From contig NZ_JRQQ01000009.1 of the NCBI RefSeq assembly GCF_001625325.1, positions 124,001-188,000 on the forward strand: 64,000 bases of DNA, in the 5' to 3' direction. Below, piece by piece: positions 1 through 15,331 of this stretch (the stretch's first letter is position 1; each line of letters begins with the position of its first letter). Both the position numbers and the translations under genes were made by a program. This DNA comes from Croceicoccus estronivorus (lineage in GTDB: Bacteria > Pseudomonadota > Alphaproteobacteria > Sphingomonadales > Sphingomonadaceae). Below the pieces are notes generated by a model. That model made no database searches and had not been told where the DNA came from. It was given only the letters and a program-made list of their open reading frames with translations.

Positions 1-415
1 CGGTAATCCCGGCGCGAAGAGGCAATCCGCCGGCGGTCGCAAGCGCGCCGTCATCGTTCACGCGCAAGGTGCCGCCGCGCCAGAGCAGGGCCTGGCCGCC
101 TGGGCCCATCAGTTCGATGAAGCCCTGCCCATCGATGGCGATATCCAGCGAATTGCCGGTTGGACGGATCTCACCTTGCGCAAACAGCATGGGATGGGAC
201 GTGATCCGAACACCGCCGTTGGGGGGAAGAGTATCGTTGCGTGGCAGTGGAAGGGCGCCGTCCGGCTGGATCTGGTTGGCCAGGATCGCCGAAAAACAGG
301 CGTCGGATCGTTTGAATGCGGGAGTATTCACATTGGCGATGTTGTTCGCCAACATCTCCAGCGCTTTCTGTTCGGCTCTCAGCGCAACGGCGCCGACTTC
401 AAATGCCCCGTTCAC
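1..415 (-). CDS. Flagellar hook/basal-body rod protein, FlgG/FlgF family (3' end outside window)
   Basis: This is the N-terminal 138 residues of a flagellar rod/hook protein, running off the left edge. Read on the minus strand from a GTG at 413-415, the protein begins VNGAFEVGAVALRAEQKALE. It then carries the family signature ANNIANVNTPAFKR of the FlgB/C/E/F/G N-terminal helix. A later stretch, GNSLDIAIDGQGFIEL, is typical of the FlgF/FlgG/FlgE conserved core. The GTG overlaps the TGA of the upstream gene (GTGA), so the pair is probably translationally coupled. Order after an FlgF-like gene would suggest FlgG (distal rod), but the N-terminus is divergent from textbook FlgG, so no symbol is given. 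Confidence 0.8.
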   Translation of the reverse strand, partial: MNGAFEVGAVALRAEQKALEMLANNIANVNTPAFKRSDACFSAILANQIQPDGALPLPRNDTLPPNGGVRITSHPMLFAQGEIRPTGNSLDIAIDGQGFIELMGPGGQALLWRGGTLRVNDDGALATAGGLPLRAGIT

Positions 416-1149
416 TTGCTGCTCCTGCTGAAAGTGGTGATCGCCTGGCCGATCAGCTGGTCATAGAACTGCACCAGTCTTGCGCCGCCTTCCGCTTGCC
501 GGGTGGCGGACATCATCGCGATCATTTCATCGCTCATTGTCACATTCGCGCTTTCCAGTTGCCCTTGATGCAGGATGCTGTCGCTCGCCTGCTCCATCGC
601 ACTGTCGGGCGCAGTGAAAATGCCCCCGCCCAACGTGGTGACCCGCTCCGGCGCGGCTGGCTCGAGAAGGGCGATGGTGGAGACTGGCAGACCGTTTTCG
701 ATTACGGTGCCATCGCCCAGGATCTCAGGCGTCGGGTTTGAAACGGTCAGGTCACCGCCGCCGGCTTGCTGCAATCTGCGCCCGGCCGGGTCGGCAACTA
801 CGCCCTCTGGCCCCACTGTGAATGAGCCGCCGCGTGAATAGACATAGACATCACCGTCGCGCAGCTGGATGAGCCCGGGACCGTAAATTGCCAGATCCAG
901 CGGGCTTCCGGTTTCGCGCAACGCGCCCTGGGAAAAGTCGGTAGTGAAGTGAAGTTCACTGTCAGCGGCTGCCCCTGTTCTTGCTACACGTGGGCCAATT
1001 GCAGAGGCCGCCTGTTTCAGTGCGCTGGTGAAAGCCACCTGCCTTTTGTAGCCCGGCGTCGACGCATTCGAGACATTGAGGGCAGACGCTTCTACCCGGC
1101 GTTCCGAAGATGCAAGAATGCTCGACGCGGACTCGATGAGTCCCGACAT
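412..1149 (-). CDS. Flagellar basal-body rod protein, FlgF-like
   Basis: A 245-aa protein of the flagellar rod/hook family. The start is the ATG at 1147-1149 (MSGLIESASSILASSERRVE), preceded by a G-rich ribosome site (TTGGGGGTAT); an upstream in-frame start at 1203 has a poor context. The N-terminal helix ends in ALNVSNASTPGYKRQ, the conserved N-S/N-N-A-x-T-P-G-Y-K-R motif. The core contains GSPLDLAIYGPGLIQL, and the C-terminal helix has the expected MIAMMSATRQAEGGARLVQF pattern. The length fits FlgF (proximal rod) better than FlgE. It overlaps the next flagellar gene by GTGA. Both proteins are divergent from enterobacterial rod proteins, so they could belong to a second or atypical flagellar system. 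Confidence 0.82.
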   Translation of the reverse strand: MSGLIESASSILASSERRVEASALNVSNASTPGYKRQVAFTSALKQAASAIGPRVARTGAAADSELHFTTDFSQGALRETGSPLDLAIYGPGLIQLRDGDVYVYSRGGSFTVGPEGVVADPAGRRLQQAGGGDLTVSNPTPEILGDGTVIENGLPVSTIALLEPAAPERVTTLGGGIFTAPDSAMEQASDSILHQGQLESANVTMSDEMIAMMSATRQAEGGARLVQFYDQLIGQAITTFSRSSK

Positions 1150-1463
1150 AATACCCCCAAGAATTTGCCGTCGCCTTTTGGTTGGGGGAAGCGGGGCATC
1201 CAAGTCAACGCGGGTTATCTCCGTAACGGATGCAACAATTTATTTGTTTGAAATATAAGAAAATAACCCGTCATGAGGTTTCTTGCGCGAGAGTTCTGTC
1301 ACCCTCGGGTACAAGGGGGTGACAGCTTTGTTCACTTCAAACCTTGAGTGGTGTCTGCTGCAAAATTTCTTCGCCTGCCGCTAAACAATCGGGCCGATCG
1401 TCGGATTGCCATTTCGGGAGGGGCCTTGCGCTCCTCATGACCGCGATTTCAGGCGAGGACGGA
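1150..1463. other. Divergent intergenic region between flagellar and RHS genes
   Basis: About 314 bases separate the flagellar start (1149, minus) from the chosen RHS start (1464, plus). The region must hold both promoters. The only clear structure is an inverted repeat at 1296-1325. An in-frame TTG at 1344 would extend the RHS protein by 40 residues, but the extension is Cys/Ser-rich, lacks family resemblance and has no ribosome site. Confidence 0.6.
1296..1325. promoter_or_regulatory. Inverted repeat, possible operator or hairpin upstream of the RHS gene
   Basis: CTGTCACCC (1296-1304) and GGGTGACAG (1317-1325) form perfect 9-bp arms around a 12-nt spacer. The spacer side also contains ACCC-TC-GGGT (1301-1310), so an alternative smaller hairpin is possible. 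It lies about 140 bases before the RHS start and has no T-run, which argues against a simple terminator. Whether it binds a regulator is unknown. Confidence 0.5.
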
Positions 1464-4400
1464 ATGGTTGCGATTTTCACGGGTGCAGGTGCCGGTTTCA
1501 CACGCGGCTCGGCCAATATCTTGGGCGGGGCCGGGCAGCTTGGCGGAGGCCTGCTGGGCCGGGGGGATGAAAGCGTGGCGGTCAACGCCGCGACGGGTAA
1601 CCTGCTTGTAACGCAACAGGATGAGTTTCTGGTCGGACGTGGCCCGGACATCGGCATTTCGCGGACTTATAACAGCCTTGGCGATGCTGCCGACGGCGAC
1701 AATGGCGACAACTGGCAACAAAGTACCACGCGGCGCGTTTTTGCGCTGACTGGCACTGCTGACACCGTGGGGAGCACGATCAGCCGGCAGGGTGGTGATG
1801 GTTCCGTGGTGGTCTATGCATGGGACGATGCCCGCGGCGCCTATGTCACTACCGCAGGCAGTGGCGCATTCGATACTCTGACCCAAACGACCGGAGTTTG
1901 GACCTGGACGGATGGCGATAGCCAGACAACCGAAACGTACGCAGCCCATGGTTCAGATAATTGGCGGATCGTCTCGACCACCGATATTGACGGCAATAGT
2001 CTGACTTATTCCTACCAAGGTGAAAAACTCGATACGGTTACGACCGCCGACGGTGCGTGGACACAGTATCTCTGGTCCGGGAACAATATCACGGAAATCG
2101 TCACGGGCTTCACTGACCTTGCGACCTCGACATCGCAAACGCTTACCCGCACTCGTTATGCTTACGATGCCAGCGACCGGCTGATCATGGTGACGACCGA
2201 TCTGTCACCGCAGGATAATGCCGTTTCGGATGGAAACACTTATACCGTCACATACACATATGATGGCGCAAGCAATCGCATTGCCTCCATCGCGCAGACT
2301 GACGGCTCGTTGCTGGAAATCGCCTATGATGGTTCCGGACGCGTCGCAGCGCTGACGCAAACGGTGGCGGCGGGCGATACGCGCGTGACGAGCCTGGCTT
2401 ATGGTTCTGGCCATACGGAAGTGACTGGTCCTGACGGCCAAGTCACCCGGCTGGACTACGATGCGGCTGGCCAACTGACGGCGATTACGGCTCCTCCGGC
2501 CTACACTGGTGCGACGGCACAGCAGGTTCAATTTGCATACGATGCGCAAGGTAATCTGGTCACGGTCACGGATGCCGAGGGAAACACCACAGCGTATGAG
2601 CACGACGCGAATGGCAATGTGACACGGGTCACGGATGCCAACGCGAACGTGGTGGAGCGGACTTACGATTCCGCCAATCGCCTGATCACCGAACTGGCCT
2701 ACGGCTCCGGCGAAGCAGGGGCCAACGTGGCCCACTATGCGCAATATGCCTACGATGTAGAGGGGCATCTCCGCTATGCGGTGAATGGCGCGGGGCAGGT
2801 CACTGAATACGAATACACTGCACATGGCGAGTTGGCGCGCCGGGTCGATTATCCCGAAACCCCCTATCCAGTCGGTCCGGCCGCCATCGACGAAGCGGGA
2901 ATGAATGCGTGGGTGACAGGGCTTGGCGACCTGAGCGCCGCACGCATCGCGTCCTATACATATGATGCGCGTGGTAATCGGACGGCGGTAACCGCCTATG
3001 GTGCCGCAGATGCTTCGGGCAATGCCGTCTCCACTGATGGCTTCAGCGCGACCTATCAGACTTATGATCAGGCAGGGCAGCTCCTGTCGCGCTATCGCGC
3101 TGGTGAACTGGCCGAAAACTTCATTTACGACGGGCTGGGGCGTCTGGTCGCATCGACTGACGTCAATGGTGGCACGACGACAATCGTTTTCAACGATACG
3201 GCTTTGACGACCACGGTTACGACGGCGGCAGGCTACACTAATGTTTCCTCGTTCAACAAAGCGGGGGAATTGGTCAGCCAGACGGGCAGCGGCGCCAATA
3301 CGGCTGGAGGGACTGCAACCTACGCATACGATGCGAACGGGCGCTTGCGCATTGTCAGCGATGCAACCGGACGTACCAGCTACACCGTCTATGACAGGGC
3401 GGGCCGCAAGGTCGCCGATGTCAACCATCTGGGCGAGATCGTCGAATATCAATACGATCAGGCAAATCGCCTGGTGGCGACCGTTCGCCACGCAGATGTG
3501 CTCAGCGCCGGACAATTGGCCCAATTGGCTGATCCTGACAGTGATGTGGAACTGTCTGCCCTCCTTCCGGTGGCCAGCAGTCAGGATATCTGGAACTGGA
3601 CCATCTATGACGATGGTGGGCGTGCCATCGAAAGTATTGGCAGTGACGGCAGTGTCGCCACCTTTGAATACGATCAGTCCGATCGCCTCGTTAAAACCAC
3701 CAGCTATCTGAACATTCTCAGCCAGGCCCAGCTTGACGCCCTGAAACAGACAGCCCCTTCCACGGTGGTCCTCCCAGGGGCGAGCGGTGGCGACGCGGTT
3801 GCGCGCCAATTTTATAATGGCGCAGGGCAGATCGTCGGGACTCTAGACGGTGAAGGTTACCTGACAGAGATCGTTTACGATGCAGCAGGGCAAAAGCTGC
3901 AGGAAATCGCCTATGCGACAGTCACCAATGTGGCAGTGCGTGCCGGCGGTAGCTTCGCGGCATTGCGGGAGACAGTGGTCGGGGCATCAACGGTCGATCG
4001 GACGGCGCATTATGTCTACGACGGTCAGGGCCAATTGCGCTTCACTGTCGATGGCGCTGGCGGTGTCCGCGCCTTTGCCTATGACAGTGCGGGGCGGCTC
4101 ACCACCACCACCGAATATGCGACCCGACTGACACTCACCGATTTTGCGTTTGATACGGTGAAGGCCGCGATTGTCAGTAACGGAGCCGATCGGGTCAGTT
4201 ATACGGTTTATGACGCATCGGGGCGGGCTGCCTATGCCGTCGATGCGGAAGGCGGTGTTACGGGGCTGACCTATGACACTTCCGGTCGGGTGGTGAAATC
4301 GGTTCAGTTCGCGGACTTGTATGAAGGCGCAACCGGGCTTCCGTCACTGGCGGAAATGGATGGCTGGGCCGCCAATCCAGCCCATGCCAGCGACACTGCA

Positions 4401-7400
4401 AATCGCGTTGACCGCAACTGGTACAGTGAGCGTGGCGAACTGCTCTACACTGTCGATGCCGGAAATTACGTTCGTGGCTTTGTGTATGATGCAGAAGGTC
4501 GCAAGATCGGGGAAAATGCGTGGCCGAATGGCGTGGTCGTTGCCGATGCAGTCACGGTTGCGCAAGTTGCGGCGGCGGCGGCCGGAGCAGGCAGCCCCAT
4601 CGCGCAAAGCTATAGCTATGACAACGCCGGGCGCCTGCTGACGAGCACGGATGGCGAAGGTTTCGTGACGCGCAATGCATACGATGCATTGGGCCAGCTG
4701 GTCGATGTCTACGTGGCGGATGGAACGAACAAGGCGGTTCGCGCCCACTACGAATACGATGCCGCCGGGCGTCTCGTGGCTGCGTATCATGCCTATGGTA
4801 CATCCGAACAAGTCGGTTCCTTCTATGCCTATGATGGTCTTGGCAACCGGATCAGCACGACCGATGCCAATGGCCATACCACCACTTACAATTATGACGA
4901 GTTGGGGCAGGTTCTCTCAGCGACCAATGCACTGGGCGGGGTGACGGCTTACGAATACGATGCCTTCGGCAATGTGGTGAAAACAACCGATCCGAAAGGT
5001 AATGCGACCTATAGTTATTATGACAGCCTCAATCGGTTGATCGCAACGCGCGATGCGGCAGGCTACGTTTCCCGCACGATTTATAATCGCTTTGGCGATG
5101 TGATTTCGGTCGAGCAATACAGTCTCCCGGCGAATGGTGCGGGTGAGACTGGCGTGGCGGTGTTCGATCCGGAACTGGTCCCCGAAGATCCCTATGAATA
5201 TGCGGACGGCTTGCAGGCCATAGCCGATGATCTCGACGCACAGGCGGCGCAGGCTGAATCCGACGCGGTGCAGGCCCAGGCTGATGCAGACGCTGCAGCG
5301 CAAGCAGCGAGCGATGCGGATGCGGTAGTCGATGATCTGGAGGCCCAGCTGGCATTGCTCGGCAGCGGGCAAGCCGTGCAACTGCTTCAGGCCCAGATCG
5401 ATCAGGCTCAGGTCGATGCGACAGCTGCGCATGCCTTGGCCGATGCCGCGCAAGCCGATGCTGACACAGCCTGGGCCGCTGCCGCCCCGCTCCGCGCTGA
5501 TGCCGATGCTGCGCAGTCTGATGCGGATACAGCCCAGGCTGCGGCTGATGCTGCGGTTGCGAATGCCGGCCAGTTACATGCCACAGCCGATAGCCTGGAT
5601 GCGCAAGCTGCACAGGCCGACACGGCAGCTGTGCAAGCGGAAGCAAATGCAACGGCAGCCGCACAGGCCGCCGCCGCCGCTGATGCGGTGGTGGATGACC
5701 TACAGGATCAACTGGACGCGCTCGGGGGTGGAAGTTCCGCGCCTGGGGTTGATTATTCAGCTGAACGTGCAGCTGCTTTGGCTGATCCGGTCTCTTGGTT
5801 GGGTGATCACCGGGATTGGCTCAAGCAGAAAGAGAATTCTTCATATTCTCTAATGCGAGGATCATCTGGAGAATATTCCGATCAATATGGGAGGTTTGGA
5901 GCATATTTTGAGTATTTAGAAATTCTAGAAGATTTTCTAGAGGGAGAGGCTAATAATAATGCAAGTGATAATGCTGTAGTAAGTTACATAAACGGGTATT
6001 TTGATCATTTAGATTGGAAAATTTCCCATCCTTTTGGCGATATTAATGCGGCGTATTCGAGTAGTGAGCAATGGATAGATTGGAGAGAGAGTGAAATTAA
6101 ATATCTTATAGAATACTATATGGATTTAAGGGGGGGAATGCAGGGGGGCGGCCCTCGACAGAAGCTGGAGCATGTAATAAGTGTTCTTGGAGGGTCTTTA
6201 TATAATATTTTAAAGGCAAAGTACGATATAGAAAATTCTTGCTATTCCATAGGATGGGATAGTGACTATGATAATTTTGATAGCTACTATAAATTTTACG
6301 GTTTTTATTTATCATACAAAATTAGTGAATCGGTCTTGTATGCTAGGGTCTCTGCTGGGAGCGGGCATCCTTCTGACTATCGTGCGAATGTGCAGATTTC
6401 TGCCTATTATGATGTAGGTGGGGAGGTAGAGGCCAATGCGTCGCCTGAACAGATACTGCAAGCTCAACTGAACCAGGCAATCACCGATGCTGACGCCGCC
6501 CATGATGCGGCGGATGCGGCGCAACTTGCTGCTGGCAATGCCTTGGCCGCAGCCACGCAGTTGCATGCGGATGCCGATCAGGCCGAGCTTGATGCCATTG
6601 CCGCCGATGGCGACGCACAGACAGCGGCCACATATGCAGCCCAACTTCAGGCCGATGTAGACGCTCTCGATCTGATCGCAGCTCAGGCAGAGGCAGCCGC
6701 AGCTGCCGTGCAGGCCGATGCAGATGCACTGGCCCAGGCGGCTTCCGATGCCGATGCCGCAGTGGCCAGCTTGCAGGCGCAGATGGCGGAATTGCTCAAT
6801 CCAACGGTGGATTATTCAAGCGAGCGTGCGGCCGCGCTGGCGGACATGAATACCTGGCTGTCTGATCGACAGACATGGCTAAACAGTGCCCGGATCGAGG
6901 CTGATAACCTTGCTTCGGCCAGCAGTGGGCTCCTGCGTGATGAGTTCGAGGCATATGCCGACCGGCTGGAGCAGGAATCCTATATTGCCCAGGATCTGCG
7001 CTACCTCCCTTCCGGTTCCTACAACGAGGTGAGGAAGGCGAACTACATTAACCAGTTCTTCGATAACCTGACCTCGCAGGCAAACAATCTCCCCATGGAT
7101 CGCGCGGCTGCGTTGGCTGATCCGGAGGCATGGCTCGAAAGCCGAAAAGAGGATCTCTCGAACTGGATTGACAGTCTTTACACGCTCGATCAGTTTAATG
7201 GTGGCAGCAACAAATTTGATAATACCTATCAGGCGTATCAAGCCGTCTGGGCGACGATGTTTGAAGCCCTATACGATCTCGAGCATAATACTTATTCAAC
7301 CAATTGGCCTGATCGCAAAGATGAATGGTCCGATTTTTACGAGGATGTTCGACAAAATCCGAACACTCTGCCCAACAACCTGCAACATAGTTCTCAGCAC

Positions 7401-10400
7401 GCTTCGAACTATCGTGCGGTGCTGGCGATCAACGCCTATTTCGATTTCGTGGCAGAGGCGGGGTCTCCCTATACCAGCCTGACGCCGGAACAATTGCTCC
7501 AGCTCCAGCTCGGTCAGGCGAATGCGAGCGCAAGCACGGCCCATGCCGCTGCTGATGGGGCGCAGGTAGATGCAGATACCGCCGCTGCCATGGCACTGCA
7601 GATGCGGGCCGATGCGACACAGGCTCAACTCGATGCCGATGCCGCTTATGCAGACGCGTTGGCGAATTCGGGTATCGCCATCCGTGACCATTTCGTTCTG
7701 CTGAACCTTGGGCAAATGGGCCCCGCTGCGGTTACCAACTTTGGATACGACCGGCTTGGCAGGACTGCATGGAAAGTTGATGCGGAAGGCTATCCGGAAT
7801 TCTACCAGTATAACGCCTTTGGACAGCAGGTCGCACTCTCACGCTATTCACAGGCGATGCCGACCGGGCAGGTGCCGGACCTCGATGGCGAACTGCCCCC
7901 TGAAGTCGTTGCGGCCTATGACCATGCCGCCCAATTGCAGGCGGCCGCCGATGCGATAGCTGCCCAGATCGCCAATGCGCAGGCTGATCTCGCCAATGCG
8001 CTGGCCAATCCGTTGCCCTATCTGCAGTCGCATCTGGATGATCAGAATGCCCAGCTTGCGACGATGAACGCCGAACTGGCCGATCTGCAAGAAGAATACG
8101 ACGATGCCAATATCATCGAACAGTGGTTCGTTCTGGGGCCGCAGATCGATGCTCTGGAAGATGACATTTCTGATCTCGAAGCGCAGATCGCTGCTGTCGA
8201 GGCAGAGGTGCAAAGGGTGCAGAACGGTCAGGGCCTGACAAACCTGGGCACTGCCATCGTCGAAGCGAACTTCGATCCGAACCAATTACAGGGCCAGTTG
8301 CAGGCGGCACAGGTCGCTGCCGATCAGGCATTGGCGGATGCGCAGGCATTGGAAACGCAGTCATCAGGACTTGCGGGGACCGAAGCCAGAACGCAATTCG
8401 TCTATGACAATCGTGGCCAGCTGACGCGGGTTACCGATGCCCAGGGGTATTTTGAAACGTTTGGCTACGACGCTTTCGGGCGCCGTGTGTCGCAGACCGC
8501 AAAGTCCTCCACATCGCCGGTAACGGCCGGTGCCACTACCACATATACATATGACAAGCGCGGGCTCTTGCTGTCGGAGACATTGCCAATAGCTTCACGC
8601 ACGAGCAGCGGCTCCGTTCAATCTTCAACTGTCATCAACCGCTATTTCTACGATGCCCGCGGAAACAGGATCAAGACAGTCGAAGCCGATGGCCTGAATG
8701 AGGAGCGGACGACCGAATATACCTATGACAATCTGGATCGCCTGATCGAAACCAGAAGGGATTCAATCAGCGGGCTGGCGATCAATACAAGCAGCAAGGC
8801 GGTATCGAGTGTTTCAGGGCGCCCGACTGAAACAATTGCCTATGATGCGCTGGGCAATGTCATCCGGACCGTTGACGCCGCCGGCGCGAAAACGGTGTTT
8901 TTCTATGACGACCTGAATCGCAAGGCGGTCGAGATCAATGCGCTCGGCACATACACGGCGTACGAATATGACGCGAACGGCGATGTCACCCGGGTCCGGG
9001 TTTACGACCAGACCAGCAATGTTCCTGCCACTGGGGGACAGGAAAGTCAGGCGCCCAATGCACCCAATGGAACATCTCGCGAGACGCAGTTCTCCTATGA
9101 CAACCTGGGCCGGATGACCGAAAGCCGTGTGATCGGAGTCACGACTGGTGGGGCGTCCGGTTCGAACTGGAACAGTTCCTCCCAACCGATCAGTACGTCT
9201 TATGAGTATGACTATCTGGGCAATCTGGTCAAAGTCACGGACCCCAACGGTAACAAGACCTGGAATTATTATGACAGGCTTGGTCGCAAGACGGCGCAGG
9301 TCGATGGACAAAATTACCTGACCAGATGGACGCTGGATTTCGAGGGTAATGTCACCGAGGAGCGCCGCTATGCCAATTCGGTTGGCAATCCTGGCAGCAC
9401 GAGCAACGCGCCCTCGGCCAGCAACAATTCCGATGACCGGATTACGCAATATACTTATGATCTCAATGGCAACCGACTGAGTGAGAAGCGGCTGAACGTC
9501 AAGGTTCAGAGCGGCAATGGTGGATACAGCACGGTCGATGCGACTATCAGCTATCAATACAACGGTCTCGGCCAGGTCGTTCGCAAGACTGAGGCGACCG
9601 GCGATCAGACAGAGTTCGTTTATGATGCCGGTGGGCGCCTCACGCGTGAGGTGAAAGAGCAGTCTGCCGCTGATTATTATTATGATGGCCTGGGGAATCT
9701 GACACGAAACGTCGAAGCCGCTGTCAATGGCAGTTCGGCACACGTCACGACATATGCCTATGGTGCTGGCGGTCGGCTGACGAGCATGACCGATGCCGGT
9801 GGCTACGTGCATGGCTATTTCTACGATGAGGCGGGGCGGCTCGTGCTCGAATCCTACGTCCGGGATGGTCGCACCGAGGCGATCGGGCATCGTTACGATG
9901 TGCTGGGCCGCAATCTTGGACAAGCCTATTACATAAAATCGGGTAGCAACTGGGCGTTCCAGTCGAATAACGACTACTCGTCGCTGCAATACAATGTTCA
10001 CGGCGAAGTGACGAAGATCGGCATCAACGGTCTATGGCAACAGGAAAACAAATATGACGGGGCTGGCCGCATATGGGCGACAAATGCGGGAGACGGCATC
10101 TGGAAATATTACGGCTATGACAAGAACGGCAACCAGACGCTTGCGGTAACGTCTGCGGGCTATGATCTTGCCGGGTTGAATTCCATCACTGCAGCTTATG
10201 CCAAGCGCAGCCAGACGGACGTCAATGCAACCATTACAGCATATGACGGTCGCAATCTTGCGACGAAGGTCGTGGAGGAAGGACGGCAGCTCAGCACATC
10301 CAGCACAGTCCAGTTGACCAGCACGCGGAGCTATAACGCCTTTGGCGAGGTGGCGAGCGAGACGGATGCCAATGGCGGGACTGTCACCTACACATACAAC

Positions 10401-13400
10401 ACCATGGGCCGTGTCATTACGGCGCAAAGCCCGCAGGTCGCGATAGTGACGGAAGCTGGCACGACCCAGAACGTCCGTCCGACAGAAAACTATTACTATG
10501 ACAAGTCGGGCCGCCTGACCGGGCAACGCGATGCCAACGGTAATTTGACTCGTTATACATTGCAGGCCGGTTCCGGCTATGGCGGTACGCAAGCGTTGGT
10601 GAGGCAGGAAATCCACGCCGATGGCGGAACCGTGACGACCGTCTACGACGCGCATGGCAATGCGATCAAGGTTACCGATGAAGTCGGGCTCATCAAGAAT
10701 ATGAGCTATGACAATCTCGGTCGGCTGACGCAGGTGACCAACCCCGGTGGATTGGTCGATTATTACACATATGACGTGCTTGGCCAGCGCCTCACGCACT
10801 ACAACAGCCTGCTCGGCGCCGGGGACAAGGAGATTACCGGTTATGACATTCAGGGGCGCATTACCTCTCAGCGCGCCTTTGGTGGAGACACGACAACCAC
10901 GTCCTACGTATGGAACAGCGCAATCGCCACGGGGGGCCTGGGCACGTTCGGTGGCTGGATAGAAACGACCGGGTACGCCAATGGCAAGACTCTGATCGAA
11001 CGAAGCGATTTGTTCGACAGAACCGTTCAGCGCACTGACCTTGGCGGTAATGTCACCAATTTCTCATACGATGAAGCAGGGCGTCTCGCATCCAGCGCGA
11101 GTGGTTTGGCCAGTAATCAATATACGTATTACAACACAGGCCAGATCGCGACTACCGCCACGACCACGAACTACCAGTACTACTCTGCCTATCCCTATAT
11201 CTCCGTCTACAGCGCCACGGCTACCAGCCAGGCGGCCTATACTTACGACAAGACCGGCAATCGGTTGACCGAGCTGGGGACGACCACAACGACAATCAGC
11301 GGCGTGGCGACCACGGAAACCTGGAAGAACCAGACTGCCACATACGATGCATTGGGCAGAATGAAGACGTGGAAGGAAGCGGGGACGACAACGTCACCAG
11401 CTGCCGATCTGACCTATTCCTATGACGCGGCCGGCAACGTCCGGCATTCCGTTGGTAATTATTCCAGACTCGACGCCAGTGGCGCGGTGGCTGGCACGGA
11501 TTCGCAGGATTACTGGTTCCGCTATGACAGTATGAACCGTCTCGTCGTTGATCGGGGGGTCCTGTCTGATGGCGAGATTCGGCGTAACCACGCTGACACT
11601 GACAGCCTGGAAATCCTCTATGATCAGGCCGGCAGACGAACGAACGTCGTCAAGACCGTTTACACCCCCGGCAGCGTGATCCCGGGTGGGTGGGGCACAG
11701 TCCCTGCGACATATCTGGAGCGGCGTGAAATCTACAACTACAACGCCGCTGGCAGTTTGTCGCAGGTCGACATTGCCTCGGGCAGTCTGCTGGTTGATCA
11801 GAACCCCGGCACCCCTCCCGAATCGGTCCCGTCAGCACCCACGACCGGGACGAAACGCTCAAGTTTCACCTATGATGCAATGGGGCGCCTTACCCGGCAG
11901 CTTGACTATGATACCGGCGGCGCGAACGCGGTCTATGACCGGGCGATTACCTACAATGCGAAGAGCCAGATAACAGCCGAAACGGTAATCACAAAGAAGA
12001 CCGACGGCACCACCTACAAGTCGGTCAGCAGCTATAGCTATAACGATGGTGCCGGGGTTTACACGCTCGGTTCGGTCGGTGCAGTCACCAGCACCAACAC
12101 CCACCTCAACTCCGGATCGAGTTCGTGGAAAAACGACAAGGGCACCAGCGACACATATACGTATATCTGGCGTGACGGTGCAGTGCAGAGCCAGATCCGC
12201 CATATTGCGGATACGAGCGACAATAGCCCGACCTACTACACCAATCTCTCCTATGACGCGGCAGGGCGATTGACGAGCGCCTACATTGCCGATGGCAAGC
12301 CTCGTTACGTTACGTATCGGCTGGATGAGAACGGGCAGATCATCAAGCGGGATGAAACGCGGCCGTCTAATGCTCCCTCCAGCCAAACCGGCAGCCCGCA
12401 CGAGATATGGTACCGTTTCGGCGGGCGGGAAATGGGCTACACGGGTAACAACGGCACATCGGATGTCGATTACACGATGTCGATTGCCGCACGGCAGAAG
12501 GTTGCGCCTTCCAATCCGGGTACCTTCCGGGATGGATCCACCATCGCCAACACTTACGCCGATTTCGCGCAGAGTTATGATCCGATCAATTCCTTTGGCC
12601 AAGGGGCCGCAGGCGGAACCTATACGGTCAGGACCGGTGACACTCTCCAATCTGTCGCCCAGTCTGTGTGGGGGGATGCCAACCTCTGGTACAAGCTTGC
12701 CGAGGCCAACGGTATCAGTGGCAATGCGGGGCTGATCGAAGGGCAGGTCCTGCAATTGCCCGCAGGCGTGATGCGCAACACGCACAACGCCGGCACGGTC
12801 AATCCCTACGACCCCAGCGAAACGATCGGCAACCTGTCGCCGACCACACCCAAGCCACCGAAGAAGAACAAGTGTGGCGGGTTAGGCGCAATCTTGTTGG
12901 CCACGGTTGCCGTTGCGGTAGCAGCATTTGCAGGGCCTGGAATTGTGAGCGCTTTCGCGAAAGTCGGCGGGGCGCTGGCCGGCTCACTAGGGGCCTCAGT
13001 TGGTACGTTTGTCGGTCTGAGCGCAGCTGGGGCGGTGTCCAGTGCGGTTAGCCAAGGTGTCGGTCTTGCTACCGGTATTCAGGATAATTTTAGCTGGAAG
13101 GCAGTCGGAATGTCTGCCCTGAAGGCTGTAGTGGCCGGTTTGCCGAACACTGGTGATTTCTTCACGGACGTCGTGAGAGGTGCCTTCAGCGAAGTCGTTG
13201 GTCAGGGGGTCGCGCTCGCCGTCGGTCTTCAAAGCAAATTCGATTTTGCGGGCGTAGCTGCTGCAGGGATCGGGGCCGGTGTCTTTAGCAAGGTGAACGT
13301 AGGAACGGCATCGCTCGGGCGAACTGGATCCGCTGCAGTGTCCGGAGTGGCAGCAGCGATTGCGAATGCGGCAACAAGGTCGGCAGTCGAAGGTTCTAGC

Positions 13401-14696
13401 TTTGGGGGTAATTTGAGCCGCGCTGTGCCAAATGCAGTTGGCTCGGCACTTGGTGGAGTACTTGCAGGGGCGCTATCTCCTGGGGGCAGGGCAAATGTCA
13501 CAGGCAATGCCGAAGTTGGGGCGGATGTGATCGGTGAAGTCATGCGTCGCCTCGAAGGGGCTAACCCTTTAGCCGAGGCAGCGGCGCTTGACACAGCGGC
13601 TTTGGCCAGTCCGATTGCGACCGGCGGTATCACCATTGGGAAAACCGCCGAAGCAACTGCAGTTGCAGCGGAATTCCGTTCCACATCGAGCGCAGAGCAA
13701 GTGGGTATAGTTGTCACTGCTGATCGTCAAATGTTCAGCTTGATAAAGTCGATGTCGGACTATCAATTCTGGAATTTGTATTATCCGATAGAGCAAGTGT
13801 GGAGGGGAGCGTCTGAAATAGCAGGAGGCTCACCTTCCGACTTGAGGCCTGCATTGGTCACATTGGCACACACAGTGCTAAATACGATTCCCTCGTCTCC
13901 TCAGATTTCCAACGGCTACGGCATATCTGCGGCACAACCTGACAGCTTTCTTGGGCGGCTGTTGTCAGGCGCAAAATACGCTTATCAAAGCTCCGTTCAG
14001 GCGTCAGGATCAATGCCGGACTTTGTAGGCGCAAAGGGAGTATCAATCGCCGGAAATGTGGTTTCCGGAGGAATACGATCAGCTGTCGATTATCTTTACC
14101 CCGATAATTCTACCCTTGCGACGAATGGCTACGTAGCCGAGCATAACGCCACAAATCCCTGGTATCGGCAGATACCGACACACTCTCAGTTAAATAGAGC
14201 ACGTGCGTTCGCACTCGAGACGATTGCAACTGGTGTTGCTAGTGCACCTCGGGGCCTGACGGTGAGAGGTGTAGGCGCAGAGGGTGCAGGTGCGCGCGGG
14301 CTCGGAGTTAGCCCGTATGTTACCAATGGCGACCTGGTGGAGAGCATTGCTACCCGCGCGGACGATTGGGGCATTCGCAATGGGTTAGGGAATGGTCCTG
14401 TTGCGGGCACGATCAAGCACGGATACGCTGAAGAGGTTCTAACTCGCTATCAGCGCATGTTCGGCGATCGCGGTTTGATTGCGGAAGCGCGCTACGCTGG
14501 CGGAGCGCCTTGGCAACCGGGCATCCCTACCACCGGTTCGATTCGCCTTGATGTGGTTGAAGGTCCGCTCACCAATCCCACCCAGGTTTGGGATTACAAG
14601 TTCGGTCAAGCCAAGCTATCAGAGTCACGCATTACTCAAATCCAAAATGGCATTCCTAACGGAGCCAATGTTCCCATTCTTATGGTGAAGCCATGA
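1464..14696 (+). CDS. Giant YD/RHS-repeat polymorphic toxin with LysM and C-terminal PD-(D/E)xK-like domain
   Basis: This is a secreted or surface toxin-delivery protein of about 4,410 aa. The start is the ATG at 1464 (MVAIFTGAGAGFTRG), with GAGGA just upstream; that N-terminus is typical of long sphingomonad RHS proteins. YD repeats (xxYDxxGRLxxxxD style) fill about residues 170-1230. Ala/Asp/Gln-rich helical segments and two paralogous helical modules occupy about 1245-2306, with a short YD stretch between them. YD/RHS repeats resume to about 3625. A LysM domain (TYTVRTGDTLQSVAQ) sits at 3719-3769, followed by a Pro/Lys linker and Gly/Ala hydrophobic helices from about 3808. The last 100 residues hold Glu4323/4324, Asp4363 and Asp4377-x-Lys4379, a pattern matching PD-(D/E)xK nucleases. 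The gene overlaps its putative immunity gene by ATGA. No canonical RHS DPxG cleavage motif and no secretion genes were found nearby. Confidence 0.88.
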   Translation: MVAIFTGAGAGFTRGSANILGGAGQLGGGLLGRGDESVAVNAATGNLLVTQQDEFLVGRGPDIGISRTYNSLGDAADGDNGDNWQQSTTRRVFALTGTADTVGSTISRQGGDGSVVVYAWDDARGAYVTTAGSGAFDTLTQTTGVWTWTDGDSQTTETYAAHGSDNWRIVSTTDIDGNSLTYSYQGEKLDTVTTADGAWTQYLWSGNNITEIVTGFTDLATSTSQTLTRTRYAYDASDRLIMVTTDLSPQDNAVSDGNTYTVTYTYDGASNRIASIAQTDGSLLEIAYDGSGRVAALTQTVAAGDTRVTSLAYGSGHTEVTGPDGQVTRLDYDAAGQLTAITAPPAYTGATAQQVQFAYDAQGNLVTVTDAEGNTTAYEHDANGNVTRVTDANANVVERTYDSANRLITELAYGSGEAGANVAHYAQYAYDVEGHLRYAVNGAGQVTEYEYTAHGELARRVDYPETPYPVGPAAIDEAGMNAWVTGLGDLSAARIASYTYDARGNRTAVTAYGAADASGNAVSTDGFSATYQTYDQAGQLLSRYRAGELAENFIYDGLGRLVASTDVNGGTTTIVFNDTALTTTVTTAAGYTNVSSFNKAGELVSQTGSGANTAGGTATYAYDANGRLRIVSDATGRTSYTVYDRAGRKVADVNHLGEIVEYQYDQANRLVATVRHADVLSAGQLAQLADPDSDVELSALLPVASSQDIWNWTIYDDGGRAIESIGSDGSVATFEYDQSDRLVKTTSYLNILSQAQLDALKQTAPSTVVLPGASGGDAVARQFYNGAGQIVGTLDGEGYLTEIVYDAAGQKLQEIAYATVTNVAVRAGGSFAALRETVVGASTVDRTAHYVYDGQGQLRFTVDGAGGVRAFAYDSAGRLTTTTEYATRLTLTDFAFDTVKAAIVSNGADRVSYTVYDASGRAAYAVDAEGGVTGLTYDTSGRVVKSVQFADLYEGATGLPSLAEMDGWAANPAHASDTANRVDRNWYSERGELLYTVDAGNYVRGFVYDAEGRKIGENAWPNGVVVADAVTVAQVAAAAAGAGSPIAQSYSYDNAGRLLTSTDGEGFVTRNAYDALGQLVDVYVADGTNKAVRAHYEYDAAGRLVAAYHAYGTSEQVGSFYAYDGLGNRISTTDANGHTTTYNYDELGQVLSATNALGGVTAYEYDAFGNVVKTTDPKGNATYSYYDSLNRLIATRDAAGYVSRTIYNRFGDVISVEQYSLPANGAGETGVAVFDPELVPEDPYEYADGLQAIADDLDAQAAQAESDAVQAQADADAAAQAASDADAVVDDLEAQLALLGSGQAVQLLQAQIDQAQVDATAAHALADAAQADADTAWAAAAPLRADADAAQSDADTAQAAADAAVANAGQLHATADSLDAQAAQADTAAVQAEANATAAAQAAAAADAVVDDLQDQLDALGGGSSAPGVDYSAERAAALADPVSWLGDHRDWLKQKENSSYSLMRGSSGEYSDQYGRFGAYFEYLEILEDFLEGEANNNASDNAVVSYINGYFDHLDWKISHPFGDINAAYSSSEQWIDWRESEIKYLIEYYMDLRGGMQGGGPRQKLEHVISVLGGSLYNILKAKYDIENSCYSIGWDSDYDNFDSYYKFYGFYLSYKISESVLYARVSAGSGHPSDYRANVQISAYYDVGGEVEANASPEQILQAQLNQAITDADAAHDAADAAQLAAGNALAAATQLHADADQAELDAIAADGDAQTAATYAAQLQADVDALDLIAAQAEAAAAAVQADADALAQAASDADAAVASLQAQMAELLNPTVDYSSERAAALADMNTWLSDRQTWLNSARIEADNLASASSGLLRDEFEAYADRLEQESYIAQDLRYLPSGSYNEVRKANYINQFFDNLTSQANNLPMDRAAALADPEAWLESRKEDLSNWIDSLYTLDQFNGGSNKFDNTYQAYQAVWATMFEALYDLEHNTYSTNWPDRKDEWSDFYEDVRQNPNTLPNNLQHSSQHASNYRAVLAINAYFDFVAEAGSPYTSLTPEQLLQLQLGQANASASTAHAAADGAQVDADTAAAMALQMRADATQAQLDADAAYADALANSGIAIRDHFVLLNLGQMGPAAVTNFGYDRLGRTAWKVDAEGYPEFYQYNAFGQQVALSRYSQAMPTGQVPDLDGELPPEVVAAYDHAAQLQAAADAIAAQIANAQADLANALANPLPYLQSHLDDQNAQLATMNAELADLQEEYDDANIIEQWFVLGPQIDALEDDISDLEAQIAAVEAEVQRVQNGQGLTNLGTAIVEANFDPNQLQGQLQAAQVAADQALADAQALETQSSGLAGTEARTQFVYDNRGQLTRVTDAQGYFETFGYDAFGRRVSQTAKSSTSPVTAGATTTYTYDKRGLLLSETLPIASRTSSGSVQSSTVINRYFYDARGNRIKTVEADGLNEERTTEYTYDNLDRLIETRRDSISGLAINTSSKAVSSVSGRPTETIAYDALGNVIRTVDAAGAKTVFFYDDLNRKAVEINALGTYTAYEYDANGDVTRVRVYDQTSNVPATGGQESQAPNAPNGTSRETQFSYDNLGRMTESRVIGVTTGGASGSNWNSSSQPISTSYEYDYLGNLVKVTDPNGNKTWNYYDRLGRKTAQVDGQNYLTRWTLDFEGNVTEERRYANSVGNPGSTSNAPSASNNSDDRITQYTYDLNGNRLSEKRLNVKVQSGNGGYSTVDATISYQYNGLGQVVRKTEATGDQTEFVYDAGGRLTREVKEQSAADYYYDGLGNLTRNVEAAVNGSSAHVTTYAYGAGGRLTSMTDAGGYVHGYFYDEAGRLVLESYVRDGRTEAIGHRYDVLGRNLGQAYYIKSGSNWAFQSNNDYSSLQYNVHGEVTKIGINGLWQQENKYDGAGRIWATNAGDGIWKYYGYDKNGNQTLAVTSAGYDLAGLNSITAAYAKRSQTDVNATITAYDGRNLATKVVEEGRQLSTSSTVQLTSTRSYNAFGEVASETDANGGTVTYTYNTMGRVITAQSPQVAIVTEAGTTQNVRPTENYYYDKSGRLTGQRDANGNLTRYTLQAGSGYGGTQALVRQEIHADGGTVTTVYDAHGNAIKVTDEVGLIKNMSYDNLGRLTQVTNPGGLVDYYTYDVLGQRLTHYNSLLGAGDKEITGYDIQGRITSQRAFGGDTTTTSYVWNSAIATGGLGTFGGWIETTGYANGKTLIERSDLFDRTVQRTDLGGNVTNFSYDEAGRLASSASGLASNQYTYYNTGQIATTATTTNYQYYSAYPYISVYSATATSQAAYTYDKTGNRLTELGTTTTTISGVATTETWKNQTATYDALGRMKTWKEAGTTTSPAADLTYSYDAAGNVRHSVGNYSRLDASGAVAGTDSQDYWFRYDSMNRLVVDRGVLSDGEIRRNHADTDSLEILYDQAGRRTNVVKTVYTPGSVIPGGWGTVPATYLERREIYNYNAAGSLSQVDIASGSLLVDQNPGTPPESVPSAPTTGTKRSSFTYDAMGRLTRQLDYDTGGANAVYDRAITYNAKSQITAETVITKKTDGTTYKSVSSYSYNDGAGVYTLGSVGAVTSTNTHLNSGSSSWKNDKGTSDTYTYIWRDGAVQSQIRHIADTSDNSPTYYTNLSYDAAGRLTSAYIADGKPRYVTYRLDENGQIIKRDETRPSNAPSSQTGSPHEIWYRFGGREMGYTGNNGTSDVDYTMSIAARQKVAPSNPGTFRDGSTIANTYADFAQSYDPINSFGQGAAGGTYTVRTGDTLQSVAQSVWGDANLWYKLAEANGISGNAGLIEGQVLQLPAGVMRNTHNAGTVNPYDPSETIGNLSPTTPKPPKKNKCGGLGAILLATVAVAVAAFAGPGIVSAFAKVGGALAGSLGASVGTFVGLSAAGAVSSAVSQGVGLATGIQDNFSWKAVGMSALKAVVAGLPNTGDFFTDVVRGAFSEVVGQGVALAVGLQSKFDFAGVAAAGIGAGVFSKVNVGTASLGRTGSAAVSGVAAAIANAATRSAVEGSSFGGNLSRAVPNAVGSALGGVLAGALSPGGRANVTGNAEVGADVIGEVMRRLEGANPLAEAAALDTAALASPIATGGITIGKTAEATAVAAEFRSTSSAEQVGIVVTADRQMFSLIKSMSDYQFWNLYYPIEQVWRGASEIAGGSPSDLRPALVTLAHTVLNTIPSSPQISNGYGISAAQPDSFLGRLLSGAKYAYQSSVQASGSMPDFVGAKGVSIAGNVVSGGIRSAVDYLYPDNSTLATNGYVAEHNATNPWYRQIPTHSQLNRARAFALETIATGVASAPRGLTVRGVGAEGAGARGLGVSPYVTNGDLVESIATRADDWGIRNGLGNGPVAGTIKHGYAEEVLTRYQRMFGDRGLIAEARYAGGAPWQPGIPTTGSIRLDVVEGPLTNPTQVWDYKFGQAKLSESRITQIQNGIPNGANVPILMVKP
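5190..8380 (+). repeat. Ala/Asp/Gln-rich coiled-coil and helical module repeats within the RHS protein
   Basis: Within the RHS gene, this block replaces regular YD repeats by low-complexity helical sequence. Similar units recur: LDAQAAQAESDAVQAQADAD near 5230, LDAQAAQADTAAVQAEANAT near 5595, and LDLIAAQAEAAAAAVQADAD near 6665. Each is followed by an ASDADAVVDDLEAQ-like end. Between them are globular-looking helical modules beginning ERAAALADxxxWL at about 5767, 6823 and 7098. A last helical segment with LQSHLDDQNAQLATMNAEL lies near 8020. The composition predicts long coiled coils, a stalk or spacer between two YD shells. Confidence 0.75.
5764..6430 (+). other. AT-rich internal module of the RHS gene, paralogous to 6806-7480
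   Basis: From about 5800 to 6430 base composition changes abruptly: TTA, ATA, AGA and GGA codons are common, while flanking DNA uses GC-rich codons. The reading frame stays open. The encoded protein aligns with the normal-composition module downstream: AERAAALADPVSWL with SERAAALADMNTWL, YDIENSCYSIGWDSDY with YDLEHNTYSTNWPDRK, and DYRANVQISAYYD with NYRAVLAINAYFDF. So it is a homologous module of different origin or age rather than random insertion. Two G tracts (6130-6136 and 6143-6148) lie inside it. Confidence 0.8.
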
Positions 14697-15331
14697 ACGA
14701 TAAACGAACAACTTTGCTCAGAAAATACGCTCCGATGACCAAAGGGCAGCTTAAGGCTGTCGTCTCGGAATATGCGGCGCACTTCCCCGAGTGGGCAATT
14801 TTTGTTGATGGCACTGCATTTGTACGTCGTTCTGGTCCGATCCAGCAGATGATCTGGTTCCAAAAAATGAGTTCCGCTGCCTATCGGCCCACGCATGGAA
14901 TAAGTTCGCTGGTGCTGCCAGAAGCGCATATTCGGATGTTGTCTCAGGTTCTTGACGTGAAGCACCGCGAGATCGAGCATCGTTGGCACGACCGTAAGTT
15001 TGCCGACACGCTAGCTGCGATGGAGGAACAGTTTAGGCCCGACATCCGCAAGCCGCTGGACCTTGCCGAGGTGCTAGCATCGTGTGAGGCCGAGGCGGCC
15101 GCTATGCTCGACACCACCAATAACATGGCGATGCTAGCGATCCTCTATGCTTGGCTCGGACGGGATACCGACGCGCTCGATTGCTGCGAGCGGATGCAGC
15201 ATTGTCCGCCTCCTACGCTGGCACCGATGCCTGAGTGGGAAGAAGCCACGCGTGTGTTCGGTCGCGACCTTGCGAAGGCGGTGCAAGTTGGATCGGCAAG
15301 GGAGTTTCTGGAGGTGGCAGCGGAAAAATGA
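14693..15331 (+). CDS. Putative immunity protein for the RHS toxin
   Basis: A 212-aa soluble protein with no signal peptide or membrane segment. Its ATG overlaps the RHS stop (ATGA at 14693-14696), the arrangement expected of a toxin-immunity pair. I do not recognise the family. The N-terminal half contains EYAAHFPEWAIFVDGTAFVR and IQQMIWFQKMS; the C-terminal half is helical, with LAEVLASCEAEAAAMLD and MAMLAILYAWLGRDTDALDC, the latter reminiscent of a TPR-like helix pair. The immunity function is inferred only from position and overlap. An alternative is a dedicated chaperone or an unrelated cytosolic protein. Confidence 0.65.
   Translation: MNDKRTTLLRKYAPMTKGQLKAVVSEYAAHFPEWAIFVDGTAFVRRSGPIQQMIWFQKMSSAAYRPTHGISSLVLPEAHIRMLSQVLDVKHREIEHRWHDRKFADTLAAMEEQFRPDIRKPLDLAEVLASCEAEAAAMLDTTNNMAMLAILYAWLGRDTDALDCCERMQHCPPPTLAPMPEWEEATRVFGRDLAKAVQVGSAREFLEVAAEK

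What the first reader, a model, noticed from the sequence alone, without database searches (positions are those of the whole stretch)
5764..7480. AT-rich module in the RHS gene encodes a paralogue of its GC-rich neighbour
Codon use changes sharply at about 5800 and returns at about 6430, yet the frame is intact and the encoded segment aligns with 6806-7480 along several motifs. Two homologous modules with different base composition in one gene implies that one came from an AT-rich donor or that modules recombine between distant toxin genes. This is unusual for RHS shells, which normally vary only at the tip.
Basis: seen in the sequence. Interest (0 to 1): 0.72.

Follow-up and report, generated by a model that had tools for sequence, protein, structure and literature searches.

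The report
Swapped tip module inside RHS shell
A giant bacterial toxin-delivery (RHS) protein carries helical spikes looped out of its shell, and the module at the end of one spike is a distant relative of its neighbour written in foreign, AT-rich DNA, which suggests that such proteins can exchange internal parts as well as the toxin at their end.

Summary
Module A (5748-6434) and module B (6807-7472) are homologous (31% identity over 219 aa, E 3e-30). A is AT-rich at synonymous sites too: 4-fold GC is 35%, against 69% in the rest of the gene (p 1e-9). The frame is intact.

Relatives explain the anatomy. At one loop between YD repeats, hairpin-free relatives have only a ~25-residue linker. The window has ~850 residues there: three tandem Ala-rich helical hairpins with a short tip, module A and module B. 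The module family (M) matches no Pfam, NCBIfam or PDB family. It occurs in six of the RHS genes read, in two genera. G945 has the same three-hairpin order, but its second module is not AT-rich and is 64% identical to its third. In the window the second is the 28% outlier.

The stalks are old and saturated at synonymous sites, while A is un-ameliorated. The best explanation is in-frame replacement or insertion of one tip module from AT-rich DNA. Module and shell trees also conflict. No donor was found, and a diverged local duplicate is not excluded by the tree. Inserted domains in RHS shells are already known; the module family and its exchange are the new part. Function (probably surface recognition) is inferred.

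The parts
1464..14696 (+). RHS/YD-repeat polymorphic toxin gene (open frame from TTG at 1344; likely start ATG 1464); DUF6531 near the N terminus, 28 RHS_repeat stretches, LysM at residues 3760-3806
5064..5129 (+). last YD repeat before insertion site 1 (residues about 1241-1262); in hairpin-free relatives a linker of about 25 residues follows, then the next YD repeat
5193..5558 (+). hairpin 1: two Ala-rich helical arms (5193-5357 and 5373-5558) with a short tip and no module
   Evidence: sequence
5556..5720 (+). hairpin 2, rising arm; 64% protein identity with hairpin 1's arm, synonymous sites saturated; predicted as one helix of 56 residues
5748..6434 (+). module A, the AT-rich tip of hairpin 2 (229 aa; two halves, about 5748-6038 and 6039-6434)
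6441..6635 (+). hairpin 2, descending arm
6630..6791 (+). hairpin 3, rising arm
6807..7472 (+). module B, tip of hairpin 3 (222 aa), composition like the rest of the gene (GC3 0.60)
7482..7670 (+). hairpin 3, descending arm; the YD shell resumes after it
7983..8279 (+). second insertion, one YD repeat later: a different tip type (N, 'NPLPYLQ...VQNGQxLTxLG'); 1 copy here and in G003, G811b, G879b, 9 tandem copies in G817
14295..14693 (+). variable C-terminal tip, putative toxin (motif DxV...WDYKFG, nuclease-like by eye); 69% identical to the tip of a distant-shelled RHS in G912
   Evidence: no Pfam match; the nuclease reading is inference
14693..15331 (+). ORF overlapping the RHS stop, putative immunity gene; no Pfam or NCBIfam match
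   Evidence: position

Best explanation
The RHS shell has a variable loop between two YD repeats, from which tandem Ala-rich helical hairpins protrude. Each hairpin can carry a helical module of two repeats (M) at its tip. Shown: the loop's variable occupancy, the old triplicated stalks, the M family, and the AT-rich composition of one tip only. Inferred: in the window's lineage the tip of hairpin 2 was replaced, or filled, in one recombination step by an M module from AT-rich DNA, exactly between the stalk arms and in frame. This is recent compared with the stalk duplications. Also inferred: the hairpins point outward from the shell and the tips recognise something outside it (a target-cell surface or a delivery partner), so exchanging a tip changes recognition, while the C-terminal toxin and its immunity gene change separately.
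For: A and B are homologous, and A deviates at synonymous sites over exactly the module. The stalk copies are 50-64% identical in protein but share only 29-45% of codons at identical residues, so they are old. G945 has the same order (short-tip hairpin, M, M) with both modules at 53-55% GC and 64% identical to each other, while A is 26-30% identical to every other M. Hairpin-free relatives show an empty site of about 25 residues, and other relatives carry one N hairpin, nine N copies or one M. With A left out, B groups with G945's modules (98/97) and B+G003 is rejected (p 0.016), although the shells pair window with G003 and reject window+G945 (p 1.5e-4). Both stalk arms are predicted as single helices of 55-63 residues with pLDDT near 88, and the modules as all-helical. 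Receptor domains inserted into an RHS/YD shell are known in SGS1 (PMC9935623).
Against: No donor and no second AT-rich M module was found. A's place in the tree is unresolved (end branch 4.0; sister to B not rejected, p 0.35). M modules evolve faster than the shell in general (window/G003: shell 71%, module 43%), so part of A's divergence could be local. The conflict between B and the shell tree could also come from ancient duplicates and losses. Outward orientation and recognition were not tested, and the module parts of the models are of low confidence (pLDDT mostly 30-70).
Confidence: 0.62

Rival explanations
1. Module A is an old local duplicate of the hairpin module that diverged quickly in place under relaxed or diversifying selection and drifted to AT-rich codons, with no foreign DNA.
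For: A as sister of B is not rejected (p 0.35). The start 'VDYS.ERAAALAD' is shared by A and B alone. M modules are faster than the shell. Three hairpins with two modules also exist in G945.
Against: The shift affects 4-fold sites (35% against 69% GC) and stops at the module borders, while adjoining stalks of the same or greater age keep host composition. No local process is known that would do this. No other M module, including G945's second one, shows it.
Confidence: 0.25
2. The whole RHS gene is a mosaic built by unequal recombination among RHS paralogues of related bacteria, and A came through an intermediate RHS gene rather than directly from an AT-rich species. (This overlaps with the best explanation; it differs in the route.)
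For: Module and shell trees conflict. The RHS gene is not in one place in the two congeners: the neighbour flgF-like gene is about 1.8 Mb away in G003. The toxin tip is shared with G912, whose shell is only 47% identical. G811 and G879 each carry two RHS genes with different inserts at the same loop.
Against: It still needs an AT-rich source at some point. No RHS gene with an AT-rich module was seen.
Confidence: 0.35
3. Assembly chimera or contaminating DNA.
For: Sharp composition change; draft genome of 25 contigs.
Against: In frame at both ends, homologous to the neighbouring module over its full length, bounded by the stalk arms, and 0.9% estimated contamination.
Confidence: 0.02

Closest known systems
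RHS polymorphic toxins with C-terminal tip displacement (Jackson et al. 2009, PMC2935791)
   Same: A conserved YD core with exchanged toxin tip; the window's own tip is shared with a distant-shelled gene in G912
   Different: In the classical case the variable part is the C-terminal tip; here a module inside the shell sequence differs in origin
SGS1, mosquito salivary RHS/YD protein (PMC9935623)
   Same: Domains formed by segments inserted into the YD-repeat sequence decorate the shell and are described as receptor-binding domains
   Different: SGS1's are a wedge fold and polysaccharide-binding/lectin-type domains; here tandem helical hairpins with an undescribed helical module; no structural match was made
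RHS toxins with embedded lectin, RicinB or discoidin domains (PMC3482391)
   Same: Adhesion-type domains among RHS repeats
   Different: Module M matches no Pfam or NCBIfam family
Tse15-type T6SS Rhs effectors (PMC11461821)
   Same: Cocoon shell enclosing a C-terminal toxin
   Different: Their extra helical domain is N-terminal; no such insertion in the shell was found in the passages read

Membership tests
RHS/YD-repeat polymorphic toxin | many RHS/YD repeats | tested here: met
   PF05593 E 8.7e-141, 28 stretches; TIGR01643 E 3e-104
RHS/YD-repeat polymorphic toxin | variable C-terminal toxin tip | tested here: met
   the last 133 residues match only G912 among 17 relatives, at 69% identity
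RHS/YD-repeat polymorphic toxin | immunity gene downstream | tested here: inconclusive
   a 212-aa ORF overlaps the stop; no family match
RHS/YD-repeat polymorphic toxin | closed cocoon shell enclosing the toxin | not tested
   only hairpin segments were folded
M tip-module family (named here) | profile match and invariant residues (E-R, W, W-L, Y-I-N, W, R, Y-D, S, W, Y-R-A, A-Y, D) | tested here: met
   26 invariant columns in 8 members, A included; profile hit on A E 1e-85 (A was in the profile)
M tip-module family (named here) | position between the two arms of an Ala-rich hairpin at insertion site 1 | tested here: met
   all 8 members
known receptor-binding insert domains of YD shells | match to a known domain fold | tested here: not met
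   no Pfam, NCBIfam or PDB sequence match; folds not compared because the models are weak

The most novel reading that the evidence does not exclude
RHS shells have a second exchangeable part: cassette-like tip modules on helical spines that project from a fixed loop of the shell and are swapped between lineages independently of the toxin tip, retargeting the particle.
Probability: 0.3. Interest if true: 0.72.

Novelty: new variant of a known kind. Interest (0 to 1): 0.5.

Why it matters
What lets long RHS proteins choose their targets is poorly known. If the hairpin tips are recognition modules that recombine on their own, they show where in the shell that choice may lie, and the empty, one-, two- and three-hairpin relatives give natural comparisons. 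The M module and the hairpin insertion are undescribed in the libraries searched.

Tried and rejected
Donor searches with module A, module B or their profiles found nothing outside RHS genes of two genera. Searched: plasmids, phages, viral contigs, genome contigs, 398 order, 385 class and 249 phylum genomes. The contig scans used only one or two narrow peptide patterns per query, so their silence is weak evidence. The single phylum hit, G1109 (E 3.5e-5, partial, two TGA inside), was set aside as probable chance. PF20507 and PF23802 hits to single modules are not significant. Similarity of the N and M modules was not significant. Structure comparison was not run, because the module parts of both models are mostly below pLDDT 70. 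A hypermutation origin of A was considered (the AT-rich stretch is C-poor, GC skew 0.33) and not pursued, since 28% protein identity with indels is far beyond it.

Full report
OBSERVATION. The window holds one RHS gene of 4450 codons (1344-14696, likely start 1464) with 28 RHS repeats, a DUF6531 N-terminal domain and a LysM. Residues 1469-1697 (module A, 5748-6434) and 1822-2043 (module B, 6807-7472) are homologous: 31% identity over 219 residues, E 3e-30. Module A is AT-rich (39.6% GC, GC3 0.32), against B (52.4%, GC3 0.60) and the whole gene (56.8%, GC3 0.605). Four-fold sites show the same (35% against 69% GC, p 1.2e-9), so this is codon choice and not only amino-acid content. TTA and ATA codons are enriched 27- and 7-fold. 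The best AT segment by GC is 5829-6341, but T-ending codons start at 5748, the first codon of the module, and host composition returns at about 6434. It is the lowest-GC stretch of the 64 kb.

ANATOMY. By reading and alignment, both modules sit between Ala-rich segments that form three tandem up/down pairs: hairpin 1 (5193-5558) with a short tip, hairpin 2 (5556-6635) with module A, and hairpin 3 (6630-7670) with module B. AlphaFold2 with the window's own two hairpins as alignment gives each arm as one helix of 55-63 residues at pLDDT about 88 and the modules as all-helical but weak. Pairing of the arms was not measured. Each module is a duplication of a unit of about 100 residues (hhalign probability 91, E 1.3e-6; hmmsearch of half 1 against half 2 of B 6e-10). 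These E-values are for tiny databases. One YD repeat later a second insertion carries a different tip type, N (7983-8279).

RELATIVES. A shell query found 15 genomes of the family with E below 1e-40, and 16 regions were read. In G284, G912, G222 (two genes) and G915 the two YD repeats that flank the insertion are joined by a linker of roughly 25 residues. At the same site G811b and G879b have one N hairpin and G817 has nine N copies. G903, G879a and G811a have long Ala-rich hairpins and one M; G945 has three hairpins with short tip, M and M; the congener G003 has one hairpin with one M. The G003 frame is shorter than the window's at its N-terminal side. M was not found in 398 order, 385 class and 249 phylum genomes apart from the window's own (G1109 set aside), nor in plasmids, phages or viral contigs. 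It has no Pfam, NCBIfam or PDB sequence relative.

WHERE A CAME FROM. Seven M modules have 52-55% GC and are 37-76% identical to each other. A is 26-30% identical to all of them, with an end branch of 4.0 substitutions per site. The stalks are older than A's composition: copies are 50-64% identical in protein, with synonymous codons shared at 29-45%, yet they have host composition. DNA that had been in this genome as long as the stalks should have ameliorated too. I infer a later, in-frame replacement or insertion of the tip. In G945, which has the same three-hairpin order, the second module is a normal relative of the third, which makes replacement the more likely of the two. The tree cannot tell whether A is a sister of B or an outsider (AU p 0.35). 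With A left out, B groups with G945's modules and B+G003 is rejected (p 0.016), while the shells pair the window with G003 and reject window+G945 (p 0.00015). So modules do not follow shells, either by exchange or by sorting of old duplicates.

FUNCTION. Receptor domains formed by segments inserted in the YD repeats decorate the shell of SGS1 (PMC9935623), and lectin-type domains occur among RHS repeats of bacterial toxins (PMC3482391). About 850 residues in one loop are unlikely to fit in the lumen with the toxin, so an outward spike with recognition tips is the likeliest reading. That is inference, and so is the idea that exchange changes specificity. The C-terminal tip is exchanged separately: its last 133 residues are 69% identical to those of G912, whose shell is 47% identical.

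VERDICT. Observation confirmed; interpretation partly supported. It is a new variant of a known kind: an RHS toxin with a previously undescribed hairpin-borne module, one copy of which has foreign composition. The donor, orientation and role are open.

Noticed in passing
window 14295-14693; L035: The C-terminal toxin tip is 69% identical over 133 residues to the tip of an RHS gene in another genus (G912) whose shell is only 47% identical: a classical tip exchange.
   Followed up: partly
L035:597-2771 (-): About 1.1 kb downstream of the G912 RHS gene lies a 724-aa fragment of an RHS 3' end (LysM onwards) with a different tip, resembling a displaced orphan tip.
   Followed up: no
L029 (G817), RHS residues about 1300-2146: Nine tandem, diverged copies of the N tip type ('PLPYLQ...VQNGQ.LT.LG') fill the same shell loop.
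   Followed up: partly
L005 (G003), minus strand: The congener's RHS open frame covers only the part from about window residue 860 onward; the N-terminal part is not in this frame (frameshift or assembly).
   Followed up: no
window 412-1203 (-): A FlgF-like gene borders the RHS gene here, but in G003 it is about 1.8 Mb away from the RHS gene, so the RHS gene has moved or was gained separately.
   Followed up: partly
window 13551-14250: A second, milder dip in GC (about 0.50) lies in the RHS C-terminal region before the tip.
   Followed up: no
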